Below are positions 2-6,238 of a DNA stretch of 64,000 bases, piece by piece. Position numbers and translations under genes: made by a program. Under the pieces are notes generated by a model that saw only the letters and a list, made by a program, of their open reading frames with translations, searched no databases and was not told the DNA's origin. Every line of letters begins with the position of its first letter. The stretch's first letter is position 1. Origin of the DNA: a bacterium (GTDB lineage: Bacteria; Planctomycetota; UBA1135; GCA-002686595); assembly GCA_030428395.1 (NCBI GenBank), contig JAUIDW010000002.1:1-64000 (forward strand), written 5' to 3'.

Positions 2-1303
2 CGGCTCGAGCGGGACGGCGCGATCGCGGTCACCGGCGCGTTCCTCGACGCGCACGGAGAGCCGCTCCGCGACGCCTGGAGCGACGAGGCCCTGCGGGCG
101 GTGCGCGCGGCGTTCCCCCTGCTGATCGTCCGCGGCGGGCTCGCCTACGGCAACGAGAGCCTGCGCTCCGCGCCCGCCGACCTGCGCGAGGGGCGCGCCG
201 GCGAGCTCGACCGCGACACGCGCGAGCGCATCCGGGCGCTGTACCGCGGCTTCCTCGACTCGCGCGGGCTCGCGCCGACCGCGGCCGCCGGGGAGCCGGA
301 CCTGGACGCGCTGGTGGAGCGCATCCGCGGGTTCGCGCGCGAGCACCTGGCCGCGGACGCGCCCGCGTGGAGCCGCCGCTCGCTGCTCGCCGGCGCGGGC
401 GGGGCCGCCGGCGCGGAGCACCGGCTGGCGATCCTGATGCTGGCCGGCGCGCTGGTCGAGGCCCGCGCGCGCGGGCACGGCGGCACCGCCGGAGGCCGCC
501 CGATCCTCGTCGTCGAGGACCCCGAGGCGCACCTGCACCCGCGGCTGCTGGCGTCCGTCTGGCGGCTGCTCGAGCTGCTCGACGTCCAGAAGATCGTCAC
601 GACGAACTCGGAGGCCTTCCTGGCCCAGGTCCCGCTCGAGGTCGTCGAGCGGCTCGAGCGCTCCGGCGAGAGCGTGCGCGGCCGCGGCCTCCGCCCGCGC
701 ACGCTGAACGCCGAGGAGCTGCGCCGCGTCAGCTACCACGTGCGCCTGCGCCGCGGCGAGGCGCTCTTCGCGCGGTGCTGGCTGCTGGTGGAGGGCGAGA
801 CGGAGTTCTGGCTGCTGCCGGGCCTGGCGCGCGAGCTGGGCCACGACCTGGCGCTCGCGGGGGTGGTGTGCGTGGAGTACGCGCAGTGCGGGGTGGCCCC
901 GCTCGTGCGGCTGGCCGACGACCTCGGCATCGCCTGGCACCTGCTGGCCGACGGCGACGAGGCCGGCGAGTCGTACGCCGCCAAGGCCCGCCGCGAGCTG
1001 CGCGGTGCGGACGACGCGGACCGCGTGACGCCGCTCCCGGCCAGCGACGTCGAGCACTACCTGTGGGAGCGCGGCTTCGCCGACGTGTTCCGCCGCGGCG
1101 CCTGGCGCAGCGAGCGCATCCGGAGCGCGCGGCGCGGCGTGGGCGCCCGCCGCACCATCCAGCGCGCCATCCAGCGCAGCTCGAAGCCGCAGCTCGCCCT
1201 GGACGTGCTCGAGCGCATCCGCGGCGGCGAGGTGGGCCCGCCGAAGCGCCTGCGGCGCGCCATCGAGGCCGCCGTCGAGCTGGCGCGGCGCGCCGGGGCC
1301 TGA
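2..1303 (+). CDS. OLD-family ATP-dependent endonuclease, C-terminal part (5' end outside window)
   Basis: The reading frame is open from base 2, so the gene begins before the window; 433 residues are visible. Seen: an ABC-type Walker B with a following acidic residue (ILVVEDPEAHLHP, about bases 502-540), a switch-like TTNSEAF shortly after, then a TOPRIM domain with the LLVEGETE glutamate motif (about 780-805) and a DGDEAG acidic motif (about 952-970). ABC ATPase plus TOPRIM is the architecture of OLD (overcoming lysogenization defect) nucleases, and the spacing resembles stand-alone YbjD-like members. Family members nick or cut DNA with TOPRIM-bound metal. No UvrD/GajB-like helicase follows, so a Gabija pair is not supported on this side; the other side cannot be seen. 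The next gene belongs to an unrelated surface-protein cluster. Confidence 0.8.
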   Translation, partial: RLERDGAIAVTGAFLDAHGEPLRDAWSDEALRAVRAAFPLLIVRGGLAYGNESLRSAPADLREGRAGELDRDTRERIRALYRGFLDSRGLAPTAAAGEPDLDALVERIRGFAREHLAADAPAWSRRSLLAGAGGAAGAEHRLAILMLAGALVEARARGHGGTAGGRPILVVEDPEAHLHPRLLASVWRLLELLDVQKIVTTNSEAFLAQVPLEVVERLERSGESVRGRGLRPRTLNAEELRRVSYHVRLRRGEALFARCWLLVEGETEFWLLPGLARELGHDLALAGVVCVEYAQCGVAPLVRLADDLGIAWHLLADGDEAGESYAAKARRELRGADDADRVTPLPASDVEHYLWERGFADVFRRGAWRSERIRSARRGVGARRTIQRAIQRSSKPQLALDVLERIRGGEVGPPKRLRRAIEAAVELARRAGA

Positions 1304-1323: not shown

Positions 1324-1441
1324 TACGGCGCAGTTCACGGCGCGCTGCGCGCTGCGCCGGATGGCCCCGGGCGCCGCGCGGCGGTGCAATCGACGCAGCC
1401 CCTCCGGATCCCGCCGCGAAACCGTACCCGGAGGTCCCGTC
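1324..1441 (+). repeat. 118-bp leader repeat, copy A
   Basis: First of three 118-bp leaders that align without gaps immediately before three paralogous genes. It contains an inverted pair GCGCAG (1328-1333) / CTGCGC (1345-1350), the invariant block GCAATCGACG followed by AGCCCCTCCGGATCC, and the ribosome binding site GGAGGT (1430-1435) six bases before the ATG. Shared length and sequence suggest a common promoter/leader copied with the gene. The hairpin could instead end upstream transcription. Confidence 0.75.
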
Positions 1442-2641
1442 ATGAAACCGCTTCGCACGCGCCACGCCGCGCTCTGCGGCGCGCTCCTCTTCGGCGTGCT
1501 CGGCCTGTTCCAGTCCGTCCGCAGCCACCAGGTGCTGCAGGGGCTGACCGGCGAGCAGCTCGACATCCTCGGACACATGAGCGTCGTGTACCTCGACGAC
1601 GGCAGCGGCACCCCGCGCAAGACGATCCAGTTCTCGGGCGTCAACGTGCGCATCGTGAACGGCCTGGGCGCGACCAACGGCTACCCGGCGGACCCCGAGA
1701 GCGTCGACCCGATGCTCACGGCGACCAACGGGCTCGGCAACCTGATCGTCGGCTACAACGAGCTCCTCGGCGGCGACGTCCGCACGGGCTCGCACAACCT
1801 CGTCACCGGCTTCTCCAACGAGTACGCGGGCTTCGGCGGCCTGATCGCCGGCCGCAACAACGCCATCGACGGCCCCTGCTCGACGGTCACGGGCGGCTAC
1901 CTGAACACCGCGACCGGCGACGGCTCGTCGGTCGTCGGCGGCACGATCAACACGGCCAGCGGCTTCGGCGCGGTGGCCGTGGGCGGCGCGTCGAACGAGG
2001 CCTCCGGCCCGTCGTCGGTCGCCGGCGGCGGCTACCAGAACGTGGTCGCGGGCAGCTACGCCACGATCACCGGCGGGCGCGCGCACACGGCCGAGGGCTA
2101 CTGCGCGAGCGTCTCGGGCGGCCGGAACAACGCGGCCGGCGGCATGTACGCGTCGGTCGGCGGCGGCTACGAGAACGTCGCCGCCGGCGAGTCCTCCTCG
2201 GTCGCCGGCGGCTACCAGGGCGCCGCGGAGGGCAACTACGCCGCGCTGCTGGGCGGGTTCGGCAACGAGTCCTCGGGCTACTGTGCGGCGATCGTGGGTG
2301 GCCAGAGCAACCTGGCGCTGGGCTCCTACTCCGCGATCGCGGGCGGCTACGGCAACGACACCCTGATCGCCTCGCAGTACGGCTTCGTCGGCGGCGGCAA
2401 CAACAACACCGCCGAGGCGTACTACGGGGCCGTCCTCGGCGGCCGGTACAACACGGCGAGCGGATACGCCGCCGCCGTCCTGGGGGGCCGGCTCAACACG
2501 GGCTCGGGCAGCCACGCCATCGTCGCGGGCGGCTACGACAACGAGGCCGGGGGGCAGTACTCCGGCGTCTCGGGCGGCTACGGCAGGACGGTCAGCGGCG
2601 TCTACGACTGGCAGGCCGGCGCCCTGTTCCAGGACTCCTGA
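1442..2641 (+). CDS. Secreted glycine-rich beta-roll repeat surface protein, paralogue A
   Basis: A 399-aa protein: signal peptide (residues 1-28, cleavage likely after VRS), a non-repeat head (about 29-105) nearly identical in paralogues B and C, then about 16-residue repeats of the form S-x-V-x-GG-x-x-N-x-A-S-G to about residue 380, and a closing YDWQAGALFQDS. The repeat resembles the Hep_Hag/YadA-head type, which folds as a stacked beta-roll in trimeric adhesins, but no coiled-coil stalk or membrane anchor is present, so the adhesin label is only an analogy. Start chosen at the ATG six bases after GGAGGT; an upstream in-frame start at 1361 would place the leader repeat inside the protein and remove the signal peptide. 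Probably exported to the cell surface. Confidence 0.8.
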   Translation: MKPLRTRHAALCGALLFGVLGLFQSVRSHQVLQGLTGEQLDILGHMSVVYLDDGSGTPRKTIQFSGVNVRIVNGLGATNGYPADPESVDPMLTATNGLGNLIVGYNELLGGDVRTGSHNLVTGFSNEYAGFGGLIAGRNNAIDGPCSTVTGGYLNTATGDGSSVVGGTINTASGFGAVAVGGASNEASGPSSVAGGGYQNVVAGSYATITGGRAHTAEGYCASVSGGRNNAAGGMYASVGGGYENVAAGESSSVAGGYQGAAEGNYAALLGGFGNESSGYCAAIVGGQSNLALGSYSAIAGGYGNDTLIASQYGFVGGGNNNTAEAYYGAVLGGRYNTASGYAAAVLGGRLNTGSGSHAIVAGGYDNEAGGQYSGVSGGYGRTVSGVYDWQAGALFQDS

Positions 2642-2704
2642 GCCGACACGCCGTGGCGCGCGGCGGAGCGGGCGGCGTCCGGGGGTCCGTCCCCCGCCGC
2701 CCGG

Positions 2705-2822
2705 TACGGCGCAGTTCGCCGCGCGCTGCGCGCTCGGCCGGATGGCCGGGGGCGCCCGGGGAAGTTGCAATCGACGGAGCCCCTCCGGATCCCGCCGCGA
2801 ATCCCTACCCGGAGGTCCCGTG
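2705..2822 (+). repeat. 118-bp leader repeat, copy B
   Basis: Second ungapped copy of the leader. The inverted pair is GCGCAG (2709-2714) / CTGCGC (2726-2731); the ribosome binding site is again GGAGGT. It is closer to copy C than to copy A: both share GGAAGTTGCAATCGACG and CCGCGAATCCCTACC, where A differs. Confidence 0.75.
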
Positions 2823-3791
2823 ATGAAGTCCCTTCCCACGCGCCACGCCGCGCTCTGCGGCGCGCTCCTCCTCGGCGTGCTCGGCCTGGTCCAGTCCGTC
2901 CGCAGCCACCAGGTGCTGCAGGGGCTGACGGGCGAGCAGCTGGACGTCCTCGGCCACATGAGCGTGGTCTGGCTCGACGACGGCACCGGCACGCTGCGCA
3001 AGACGATCCGCGTCACCGGCGTGAACCTGCAGATCGTCAACGGGCTCGGCGCGACCAACGGCTACCCCGCGGACCCCGGAAGCGTCGACCCGGCGCTGAC
3101 CGACACCAACGGCCTGGGCAACCTGATCGTCGGCTACGGCGAGCTCGGCGGGACCGACGTGCGCACGGGCTCGCACAACGTCGTCACCGGGCTGTGGAAC
3201 AGCCACGGGAGCTTCGGCGGTCTGGTCGCGGGTCGCCTGAACCGGATCGACGGACCCTGCTCGACCGTCGCGGGCGGGACGAGCAACGCCGCGAGCGGCC
3301 TGGCCGCCTCCGTGGCCGGCGGGCTGTTCAACTCGGCCAGCGGCCCCGACTCGACCGTCTCCGGCGGGGCCGGCAACGACGCGCAGGCGCCGGGCTCGGC
3401 GGTCAGCGGCGGACTGGGCAACCGGGCCGAGGGGGACTACTCCGCGCTCGCAGGCGGGCGCCTCAACACGGCCACGGGCTTCGGCGCCGCGGTAGCCGGC
3501 GGCTACCAGGTGGCCTCCGTCGGCGACTACGCCTCGGTCCTCGGAGGGGAAGGCAACGCCGCCACCGGCTACTGCGCGGTCGTCCTCGGCGGCCAGAACA
3601 ACCAGGCGCTCGGCTCCCACTCCGCGATCGCGGGCGGCTGGAGCAACCTGAGCTCGGGCAGCGACGCGTCCGTCGCGGGCGGGTACGACAACGAGGCCGC
3701 GGGTCCGTACTCCGTCGTCAGCGGCGGCAGCACCCGAACGGTCAGCGCCACCTACGACTGGCGGGCGGGCGCCCTGTTCCAGGACGACTGA
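2823..3791 (+). CDS. Secreted glycine-rich beta-roll repeat surface protein, paralogue B
   Basis: A 322-aa paralogue of the gene before it, with the same signal peptide and head (residues 1 to about 105) and the same terminal YDWRAGALFQDD cap, but fewer repeat units in the middle (about 106-305). Differences between paralogues therefore lie mostly in the number and sequence of the 16-residue units, as expected if units are gained and lost by recombination. The head region is nearly identical to paralogue C. It is preceded by the shared leader and followed 27 bases after the stop by the next leader copy, so each gene probably carries its own promoter. Function unknown; exported surface protein is an inference from signal peptide and repeats. 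Confidence 0.8.
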   Translation: MKSLPTRHAALCGALLLGVLGLVQSVRSHQVLQGLTGEQLDVLGHMSVVWLDDGTGTLRKTIRVTGVNLQIVNGLGATNGYPADPGSVDPALTDTNGLGNLIVGYGELGGTDVRTGSHNVVTGLWNSHGSFGGLVAGRLNRIDGPCSTVAGGTSNAASGLAASVAGGLFNSASGPDSTVSGGAGNDAQAPGSAVSGGLGNRAEGDYSALAGGRLNTATGFGAAVAGGYQVASVGDYASVLGGEGNAATGYCAVVLGGQNNQALGSHSAIAGGWSNLSSGSDASVAGGYDNEAAGPYSVVSGGSTRTVSATYDWRAGALFQDD

Positions 3792-3818
3792 GACCGGGCG
3801 TCGCCCGCCGGGCCGCCC

Positions 3819-3936
3819 TACGGCGCAGTTCGACGCGCGCTGCGCGCTCGGCCGCATGGCCGGGGGCGCGCAGGGAAGTTGCAATCGACGTAGCCCCTCC
3901 GGATCCTGCCGCGAATCCCTACCCGGAGGTCCCGTC
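3819..3936 (+). repeat. 118-bp leader repeat, copy C
   Basis: Third ungapped copy, with inverted pair GCGCAG (3823-3828) / CTGCGC (3840-3845) and GGAGGT before the ATG. No further copy is seen after paralogue C, so the cassette count is three. Confidence 0.75.
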
Positions 3937-5235
3937 ATGAAGCCCCTTCCCACGCGCCACGCCGCGCTCTGCGGCGCGCTCCTCCTCGGCGTGCTCGGTC
4001 TGGTCCAGTCCGTCCGCAGCCACCAGGTGCTGCAGGGGCTGACGGGCGAGCAGCTCGACCTCCTCGGCCACATGAGCGTCGTCTGGCTCGACGACGGCAC
4101 CGGGACGCTGCGCAAGACGATCCGCGTCACCGGCGTGAACCTGCAGATCGTCAACGGCCTCGGCGCGACCAACGGCTACCCCGCGGACCCCGGAAGCGTC
4201 GACCCGGCGCTGACCGACACCAACGGCCTGGGCAACCTGATCGTCGGCTACGGCGAGCTCCTGCCCGGGGACGACCGCACGGGCTCGCACAACGTCGTGA
4301 CGGGCTACGCGAACGACTACAGCGGCTTCGGCGGGCTGGTCGCGGGCCTCGGGAACACGGTCGCGGGCCCCTGCTCCTCGGTGACGGGTGGCTCCGTGAA
4401 CACCGCGAGCGGCGAGGGCGCCTGCGTCGCGGGCGGCCTGCTGAACACCTCGAGCGGCCTGGCGACCACCGTCGCCGGCGGCTCGGGCAACACCGCGAGC
4501 GGCCTCGCGGCGCACGTCTCCGGCGGCTCGGCGAACGCAGCGACGGCGTCGTACGCGGTGGTCGGCGGCGGCGCCGAGAACGTCGCGGGGGGCAGTTCCG
4601 CGGTCGTCGCCGGCGGCCAGCGCAACGTGGCGCTCGGCGACCACTCGACGATCGCGGGGGGCACCGACAACGACACGACGGGCGGCGCGCTCTACAGCTT
4701 CATCGGGGGCGGCCAGGAGAACACGACCAGCGGTGGCTTCTACGGCACGGTCCTCGGCGGGCTCTACAACACGTCCGACTCCTTCGCGAGCTCGATCCTC
4801 GGCGGGCGCAACAACGTGGCGTCCGGCAGCCAGTCCGCCCTCGTCGGTGGCTTCGGCAACGAGGCCGCGGGAGACTACTCGGTCGTGGGCGGCGGCAGCG
4901 TCAACCTGGCCCAGGGGCTGTACTCGACCATCGCCGGAGGCCGCTACAACGACACCGTGACCGAGTCGTTCTGGGCCTTCGTCGGAGGCGGCCGCGAGAA
5001 CACGACCGAGGCGGACTACTGCGCGGTCCTCGGCGGCCGGCTGAACACCTCGACGGGGTCCGGAGCCGCGGTCCTGGGGGGCCAGCTCAACACGGCCTCG
5101 GGCAGCGACGCCACCGTGTCGGGCGGCTACGACAACGAGGCCGCGGGCCTGTACTCCTCCGTGAGCGGCGGCTACGGGGACAGCGTCAGCGGCACCTACG
5201 ACTGGCGCGCGGGCGCCCTGTTCCAGGACTCGTGA
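3937..5235 (+). CDS. Secreted glycine-rich beta-roll repeat surface protein, paralogue C
   Basis: A 432-aa protein and the longest of the three paralogues. Signal peptide and head match paralogue B almost residue for residue (LTGEQLDLLGHMSVVWLDDGTGT against LDVLGHMSVVWLDDG). The central array carries more 16-residue GG-x-x-N-x-A-S-G units plus two longer inserts containing FIGGGQENTT and FVGGGRENTT; paralogue A has a similar FVGGGNNNT unit. The C-terminal YDWRAGALFQDS cap is conserved. No sortase, autotransporter, PEP-CTERM or Por sorting signal is recognised, so how it is held at the surface is unknown. Confidence 0.8.
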   Translation: MKPLPTRHAALCGALLLGVLGLVQSVRSHQVLQGLTGEQLDLLGHMSVVWLDDGTGTLRKTIRVTGVNLQIVNGLGATNGYPADPGSVDPALTDTNGLGNLIVGYGELLPGDDRTGSHNVVTGYANDYSGFGGLVAGLGNTVAGPCSSVTGGSVNTASGEGACVAGGLLNTSSGLATTVAGGSGNTASGLAAHVSGGSANAATASYAVVGGGAENVAGGSSAVVAGGQRNVALGDHSTIAGGTDNDTTGGALYSFIGGGQENTTSGGFYGTVLGGLYNTSDSFASSILGGRNNVASGSQSALVGGFGNEAAGDYSVVGGGSVNLAQGLYSTIAGGRYNDTVTESFWAFVGGGRENTTEADYCAVLGGRLNTSTGSGAAVLGGQLNTASGSDATVSGGYDNEAAGLYSSVSGGYGDSVSGTYDWRAGALFQDS

Positions 5236-5323
5236 GCGCGGCGACGCGCGGCGGCGCGCTGGACGCCGCCGCGCGAGCGGCCTATCGTCCCGGGCTCCCG
5301 GGCAGGTGCCCCGGGCCTCACCC

Positions 5324-6238
5324 GTGATCACGCGCACCGACATGCCGTGGGGCGCCGTCGCGCGCAGCTACGCGACCCACCTCGCGTGGATGACCGCCTT
5401 CGCGGCGAGCGTGGTCCTGGCGTACCGCGCGGGCCTCCGGGAGATCTCCGTCCCGCTCGCCATCCCGACCTTGCTCGGGACGGCGCTGTCCATCCTGCTC
5501 GGCTTCAGCACCAACGCCGCGTACGCCCGCTGGTGGGAGGCGCGCAAGCTCTGGGGGGCGATCATCAACGACTCGCGCTCCCTGGCGCGGCAGGTCCTCG
5601 GCCTGTTCGACACCGACGCGAAGGGTCCGGACCCCGCGGCGCCGACGGAGCTGCAGCGCGAGCTGGTGCACCGGCAGATCGCCTGGTGCTGGGCGCTGAA
5701 CCGCGCCCTCCGCGGCCAGGATCCGCTGCCGGCCGTCCGCGGCCTCGTGCCGGACGCCGAGCTGGCTGCCCTCGAGCCGCGCTCGAACCGCCACGCGGCG
5801 CTGCTCGTCACCCAGGCGGAGCGCCTGCGGGACGCCCACCGCGCCGGGCACCTCGAGCTGTTCGCCCTGCTGTCGCTCGACGAGACCCTGTCGCGCTTCA
5901 GCAACCACATGGGGGCCTGCGAGCGCATCAAGAAGACCGTCTTCCCGACCCCCTTCGGCGCCTACATCCGCCTGGCGCTGAACCTGTTCCTGGTGCTGCT
6001 GCCGTTCGGGCTCGTCGAGCACGTCGGCTGGATCGCGGTGCCGATCACGGTCGTGGTGGTGACGATCTTCGTCCTGCTCGAGCGCACGGCGCGCGCGCTG
6101 CAGGACCCCTTCGAGGGGCGCTCGACCGACACGCCGATGGACGCCTGCTGCCGGACGATCGAGATCGACCTGCGCCAGCAGCTCGGCGAGACCGACGTGC
6201 CGCCGCCGCTGCTGCCGGTCGACGGCGTGCTCATGTAG
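5324..6238 (+). CDS. Bestrophin-family (UPF0187/YneE-like) chloride channel protein
   Basis: A 304-aa protein from the GTG at 5324; an earlier in-frame GTG at 5306 would add six residues. Seen: an N-terminal hydrophobic helix (WMTAFAASVVLAYRAG), the family stretch LGFSTNAAYARWWEARKLWGAI, and two C-terminal membrane segments (about residues 210-255) followed by LQDPFEGR...TDTPMD, where bestrophins have the conserved NPFG/DPF and DxP motif. Bacterial bestrophins form pentameric anion or cation channels in the inner membrane. It faces the GFA-domain gene tail to tail with about 20 bases between them, so they are not co-transcribed. Confidence 0.85.
   Translation: MITRTDMPWGAVARSYATHLAWMTAFAASVVLAYRAGLREISVPLAIPTLLGTALSILLGFSTNAAYARWWEARKLWGAIINDSRSLARQVLGLFDTDAKGPDPAAPTELQRELVHRQIAWCWALNRALRGQDPLPAVRGLVPDAELAALEPRSNRHAALLVTQAERLRDAHRAGHLELFALLSLDETLSRFSNHMGACERIKKTVFPTPFGAYIRLALNLFLVLLPFGLVEHVGWIAVPITVVVVTIFVLLERTARALQDPFEGRSTDTPMDACCRTIEIDLRQQLGETDVPPPLLPVDGVLM

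What the first reader, a model, noticed from the sequence alone, without database searches (positions are those of the whole stretch)
1324..5235. Three repeat-protein cassettes, each behind the same 118-bp leader
Leaders at 1324-1441, 2705-2822 and 3819-3936 are all 118 bases and align without gaps, with a conserved hairpin; heads and C-terminal caps of the proteins are near-identical; the middle repeat arrays differ in length (399, 322, 432 aa). This is the layout of a gene family built by cassette duplication, where recombination in repeats may make surface variants. Leader conservation beyond the ribosome binding site suggests a shared regulator or RNA structure.
Basis: partly seen in the sequence, partly recalled or inferred. 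Interest (0 to 1): 0.65.

Follow-up and report, generated by a model that had tools for sequence, protein, structure and literature searches.

The report
Tandem secreted beta-roll repeat genes
Three neighbouring genes in an uncultured planctomycete encode secreted, corkscrew-shaped repeat proteins that arose by gene duplication, and the matching DNA in front of them is best explained as part of the copied and recently homogenised unit rather than as a special regulatory switch.

Summary
Three 118-base leaders align without gaps, in front of 399-, 322- and 432-residue proteins. The genes lie in a planctomycete MAG. Each protein has a Sec-type signal peptide, a conserved head of about 100 residues that matches no Pfam or NCBIfam model or PDB sequence, and 12, 17 or 19 coils of about 15 residues. 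Each ends in a conserved tip (YDWxAGALFQDx). The coils match the UspA1/YadA-head type of left-handed beta-roll by sequence (PDB 3pr7, profile E=5.7e-34) and by predicted fold. No autotransporter anchor was found. Relatives occur in several phyla, with patchy, variable copy number (15 of 81 family genomes, 1-11 matches each).

The leader inference fails. For copies 2 and 3, leader plus signal plus head form one 442-base block (3.2% divergence) that starts at the leader's first base and stops at codon 108; beyond it divergence is 35%. Inside that block the leader is no more conserved than neutral sites. Other family members in the genome and 60 relatives lack it. The hairpin is not more stable than shuffles, and Shine-Dalgarno occlusion is at chance or marginal level. 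Coil number changes by whole coils, but no near-identical repeats suggest ongoing switching. The kind is ordinary, with a neat mosaic pattern.

The parts
1324..1441 (+). leader A (118 nt), directly upstream of gene A
   Evidence: gapless alignment with leaders B and C
1401..1434 (+). CCTCCGG (1401-1407) and CCGGAGG (1428-1434): possible pairing over the Shine-Dalgarno site of A; equivalents 2782-2788/2809-2815 (B) and 3896-3902/3923-3929 (C)
   Evidence: sequence; predicted fold; SD occlusion not clearly beyond shuffles
1442..2641 (+). gene A, 399 aa: signal peptide (codons 1-30), head (31-131), 17 coils, C-terminal tip
1835..2572 (+). beta-roll coil array of gene A (about 15 aa per coil)
   Evidence: coil decomposition; Pfam PF21300 37.9 bits against cut-off 30
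2573..2638 (+). C-terminal coil and tip of A (GGYGRTVSGVYDWQAGALFQDS)
   Evidence: tip conserved across the family
2705..2822 (+). leader B (118 nt)
   Evidence: start of the 442-nt B/C homogenised block
2823..3791 (+). gene B, 322 aa, 12 coils (array 3216-3722, last coil and tip 3723-3788)
   Evidence: AlphaFold2 model
3819..3936 (+). leader C (118 nt)
3937..5235 (+). gene C, 432 aa, 19 coils (array 4330-5166, last coil and tip 5167-5232); contains an internally duplicated, diverged block (coils 6-10 resemble coils 12-16 and A coils 10-14)
2705..3146 (+). 5' module of B (leader + signal + head to codon 108), 3.2% diverged from the equivalent 3819-4260 of C while the rest is 35% diverged: recent duplication or gene-conversion tract
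   Evidence: change-point analysis

Best explanation
This is a tandem array of three paralogous genes for secreted beta-roll (left-handed parallel beta-solenoid) proteins of a planctomycete. Each protein is exported by Sec, has an N-terminal conserved head, and then a rigid rod of 12-19 coils of about 15 residues, capped by a conserved C-terminal tip. By fold and coil motif the rod works like the YadA/UspA1-type head of trimeric adhesins, so the most likely role is an extracellular or cell-surface binding/adhesion rod, possibly trimeric. The array grew by duplication of a unit that starts at the first base of the 118-nt leader and so carried its own upstream region. Afterwards the coil arrays diverged and gained or lost whole coils. 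The 5' module (leader, signal peptide, head) of copies B and C was homogenised recently by recombination, with a break at about codon 108. Leader similarity is therefore a by-product of shared 5' modules; each copy probably has its own promoter and ribosome-binding site, but nothing shows a special regulator. Shown: anatomy, homology, mosaic divergence, predicted fold. Inferred: export, surface location, binding role, oligomeric state, promoter in the leader, and recombination as the cause of the mosaic.
For: Anatomy and coils. Fold: Pfam PF21300 above its cut-off for A and C, and matched by 35 of 48 family members at E<=0.01; profile against PDB UspA1 3pr7 E=5.7e-34 and grass ice-binding protein 3ult 2e-7; AlphaFold2 pLDDT 97-99 over most of the array, best Foldseek hits 3pr7, BpaC 7o23, CbpF 9gh5, all from trimeric autotransporter adhesins. 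Family: 270 relatives of the head in GTDB genomes across phyla. Tandem and multi-copy in relatives, 15 of 81 family genomes with 1-11 matches, with presence/absence within genera g58 and g3. Mosaic: B/C block of 442 nt at 3.2% divergence from leader base 1 to codon 108, then 34.6%; A/B block from leader -2 to codon 123 at 13.5%, then 28.9%. Leader vs 4-fold sites B/C 5.9% vs 7.2%, p=0.76. Other lineages show tandem pairs with shared but unrelated leaders. Heptads just before the head occur in 14 of 41 genes of the mixed-phyla loci against 6 of 48 of the nearer loci, a hint of trimerisation.
Against: No experiment shows secretion, surface display, binding or trimerisation. AlphaFold2 is known to over-predict beta-solenoids for perfect repeats (PMC11795689), though here independent sequence matches to solved beta-rolls agree. 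Across five of six independent tandem pairs the last 50 leader bases are much less diverged than 4-fold sites in the head, and pooled over all six the signal codons are too (40/286 and 24/109 vs 81/188), so some real constraint, or conversion focused on the gene start, may exist. The A/B leader comparison is borderline (13.6% vs 25.9%, p=0.058).
Confidence: 0.72

Rival explanations
1. The leader is a regulatory RNA: the invariant CCTCCGG strand pairs with CCGGAGG and hides the Shine-Dalgarno site until a signal (temperature, ligand, protein) opens it, co-regulating the three genes.
For: The complement is invariant in all three copies. Predicted SD openness 0.004-0.017 is the lowest among the window's SD-bearing ORFs (others 0.04-0.50).
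Against: Shuffled upstream sequence reaches equal occlusion in 4-15% of cases. Whole-leader fold z-scores are 0.03, 0.21 and -1.27. No Rfam match. An invariant stem gives no covariation evidence. Two other family members of the same genome have more open SD sites (0.36, 0.60), and none has this leader.
Confidence: 0.1
2. The leaders and signal-peptide codons are under purifying selection at the nucleotide level (promoter, mRNA start, translation initiation), independent of gene conversion.
For: The pooled 5' minimum of divergence, clear in five of six lineages with unrelated leaders. Reduced synonymous change at bacterial gene starts is an effect I recall from the literature; the papers listed were not read for it.
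Against: In B/C the leader is as diverged as neutral sites. In G009 the 85-nt leader is identical while 17 of 30 head 4-fold sites differ, which looks more like a conversion tract, or an assembly overlap at contig ends, than graded selection.
Confidence: 0.3
3. The proteins are ice-binding proteins like the grass antifreeze beta-roll.
For: Pfam PF21300 (grass antifreeze beta roll) is above its cut-off for A and C; 3ult profile match E=2e-7.
Against: The grass ice-binding motif NXVXG/NXVXXG (PMC5744647) is nearly absent: 1, 0 and 2 instances against 9, 7 and 9 of NXAXG. UspA1 is the much stronger match by sequence and fold.
Confidence: 0.05
4. Repeat-mediated phase or antigenic variation: recombination between coils or copies switches surface variants within a population.
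For: Constant ends with variable middles; coil numbers 17, 12 and 19; whole-coil indels; a divergence breakpoint at codon 108.
Against: No near-identical repeats within or between arrays: best within-gene coil match about 75% nt, best between-gene 89% over 45 nt; Tandem Repeats Finder shows only one longer array, 45 nt by 3 copies at 77%.
Confidence: 0.12

Closest known systems
UspA1 / YadA-type head domains of trimeric autotransporter adhesins (PDB 3pr7, 3ntn, 7o23, 9gh5)
   Same: Coils of about 15 residues, beta-roll fold by sequence match and predicted structure
   Different: No YadA membrane anchor found; the protein ends in its own conserved tip; a conserved N-terminal head without a library match precedes the coils
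LbR_Ice_bind PF21300, grass antifreeze beta-roll (LpIBP, PDB 3ult)
   Same: Coil length and overall beta-roll; Pfam cut-off passed for A and C
   Different: Ice-binding NXVXG motif largely replaced by NXAXG; longer arrays; bacterial head and tip
Unnamed bacterial head-plus-beta-roll family (N-x-QIVNGLGATNG ... GNLIVGYNE ... RTGSHN) in planctomycetes, proteobacteria, Binatia and others
   Same: The window genes are members: same head, coils and, in many, the same tip
   Different: Relatives have unrelated leaders; some have N-terminal heptads before the head

Membership tests
Head-plus-beta-roll family defined by alignments A2/A3 | Conserved head motif QIVNG..AT.G ... GNLIVGY ... GSHN | tested here: met
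Head-plus-beta-roll family defined by alignments A2/A3 | C-terminal tip DWxAGxLFxx at the very end | tested here: met
Trimeric autotransporter adhesin (type Vc) | YadA-like left-handed beta-roll head | tested here: met
   (prediction and sequence only)
Trimeric autotransporter adhesin (type Vc) | C-terminal YadA membrane anchor | tested here: not met
   no Pfam anchor match at E<=1 in any of the three; proteins end at the tip
Trimeric autotransporter adhesin (type Vc) | Homotrimer | not testable with these tools
   only monomer prediction was available
Grass-type ice-binding protein (PF21300) | Pfam profile above the curated cut-off | tested here: met
   A 37.9, C 41.5 bits against 30; B 20.6, below cut-off
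Grass-type ice-binding protein (PF21300) | Repeated NXVXG/NXVXXG ice-binding motif | tested here: not met
   1, 0 and 2 instances; motif from PMC5744647
Structured cis-regulatory leader (riboswitch, thermometer) | Known RNA family, or structure beyond chance with covariation | tested here: not met
   covariation not assessable with three near-identical leaders

The most novel reading that the evidence does not exclude
A diversification system of environmental bacteria in which recombination repeatedly copies a constant 5' module (leader, signal peptide, head) between tandem genes while the coil arrays stay private, giving co-expressed surface rods of different length and binding face.
Probability: 0.15. 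Interest if true: 0.5.

Novelty: new member of a known kind. Interest (0 to 1): 0.3.

Why it matters
It identifies a widespread family of secreted beta-roll proteins whose conserved head has no library model and which lacks an autotransporter anchor, multi-copy in some planctomycetes. It also gives a clear example of why leader conservation among tandem paralogues must be measured against neutral sites of the same block before a regulator is inferred.

Tried and rejected
Rfam search of the region: no match. Sigma-70 promoter and terminator scan: no promoter found, and the one terminator-like site is at shuffle level. SD-occlusion test on the window and on the family: not family-wide and marginal against shuffles. 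Leader search in 60 family genomes: only short fragments at E 4e-5 to 9e-4, scattered over many genomes, consistent with chance in GC-rich DNA. Head against PDB sequences: no match. Phage and plasmid collections: no phage match, one weak plasmid match. The in-frame ATG 81 bases upstream in every leader was considered as an N-terminal extension and rejected: it has no SD, and by my own count from the differences they fall on first codon positions as often as on third.

Full report
Observation. The three leaders (1324-1441, 2705-2822, 3819-3936) are 118 nt each, align without gaps and end at the ATG of genes coding 399, 322 and 432 residues. In the own genome (5.8 Mb, 554 contigs) a DNA search finds the leader at these three places only; with a longer query that adds 60 coding bases, one further short, weak match appears. 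The window is the start of a 67-kb contig.

Protein anatomy. Each protein has a Sec-like signal peptide (by eye: MKxLxTRHAALCGALL...), a head of about 100 residues, an array of coils with the pattern GGxxNxAxGxxSxVx, mostly 15 residues per coil (17, 12 and 19 coils), and a terminal tip YDWxAGALFQDx. The array passes the Pfam cut-off for LbR_Ice_bind in A and C. A family profile matches UspA1 3pr7 at 5.7e-34 and the grass ice-binding protein 3ult at 2e-7. AlphaFold2 on gene B gives a beta-solenoid with pLDDT 97-99 over most of the array, and the best Foldseek hits are UspA1, BpaC and CbpF. AlphaFold2 is known to favour beta-solenoids for perfect repeats (PMC11795689), so the sequence matches carry the weight. 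The head has no Pfam, NCBIfam or PDB sequence match. No membrane anchor was found.

Family. The head finds 270 related stretches in GTDB genomes; the best 80 include planctomycetes, Armatimonadota, Binatia, proteobacteria, a Nitrosomonas and a Methylotetracoccus. In the window's own GTDB family, 15 of 81 genomes carry it, with 1-11 matches, and two genera have one species with and one without (MAG incompleteness is a caveat). Tandem or paralogous copies that share a leader occur in G009, G021, a JAQWOM MAG and Methylotetracoccus, but each lineage has its own unrelated leader. The other family members of the window's genome lack the 118-nt leader. Leaders are therefore carried along by local duplication and are not a family-wide element.

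Is the leader under special constraint? Optimal segmentation of the B/C comparison gives one block from leader base 1 to codon 108 (442 nt, 14 differences) between two strongly diverged parts. Inside the block the leader (7/118) is no more conserved than 4-fold sites (5/69; p=0.76). For A against B, the block runs from leader -2 to codon 123 at 13.5%, again continuous from leader into head. So leader and head behave as one 5' module, which the tract boundaries suggest was homogenised by recombination. One observation stays open: pooled over six independent pairs, the last 50 leader bases and the 4-fold sites of the first 30 codons are less diverged than head 4-fold sites (40/286 and 24/109 vs 81/188). 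This is compatible with general constraint at gene starts or with conversion focused there.

RNA structure. In all three copies CCTCCGG can pair with CCGGAGG over the SD site. Predicted openness is very low, but shuffled upstream sequence does as well in 4-15% of cases and the property is not shared by the family. Whole-leader folds are not clearly more stable than shuffles, and Rfam has no match. There is no positive evidence for a structured regulator.

Array evolution. Coils correspond between genes in order (A10/B8/C6 and A14/C16 at 80-89% nt). B lacks the equivalent of A coils 11-13, and C carries a second, diverged version of a five-coil block (coils 6-10 and 12-16). Changes are by whole coils, as expected for a solenoid. 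Coils within a gene are no more than about 75% alike, so there is no sign of present-day slippage or switching.

Conclusion. These are ordinary members of a widespread secreted beta-roll family, best compared with YadA-type adhesin heads in fold but not members of the trimeric autotransporters as tested. The leader similarity follows from tandem duplication plus recent homogenisation of the 5' module. A binding or adhesion role outside the cell is the most likely function, inferred only.

Noticed in passing
window 101-1303 (+): 3' part of a GajA/OLD-like nuclease gene (PADLOC GajA E=1.5e-76, OLD-like TOPRIM), whose stop lies 20 bases before leader A; the 5' end probably lies off the contig start.
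   Followed up: partly
window 5306-6238 (+): Bestrophin-type channel gene (Pfam Bestrophin_2, 8.7e-65) directly downstream of the array.
   Followed up: partly
L077 1954-7700 and L075 2-4459: A second kind of protein with the same coils but a different N-terminus (PxPGLLFPPPHDGG in L077) and a C-terminal coiled coil, also clustered in L077; possibly the inverted arrangement of stalk and beta-roll.
   Followed up: no
L049 and L053, first 85 bases of the genes' strand: Two contigs of G009 end inside an identical leader plus near-identical signal region while heads and arrays are strongly diverged; the contigs probably break at the shared 5' module.
   Followed up: partly
L139, L140, L143, L147, L148, L150 and others: Relatives outside the planctomycetes carry heptad repeats (such as ALEARVAELEALL) directly before the head, suggesting an N-terminal trimeric coiled coil.
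   Followed up: partly
L118: A head-plus-coil gene in a contig labelled Candidatus Harrisonbacteria (CPR); horizontal transfer or MAG contamination.
   Followed up: no
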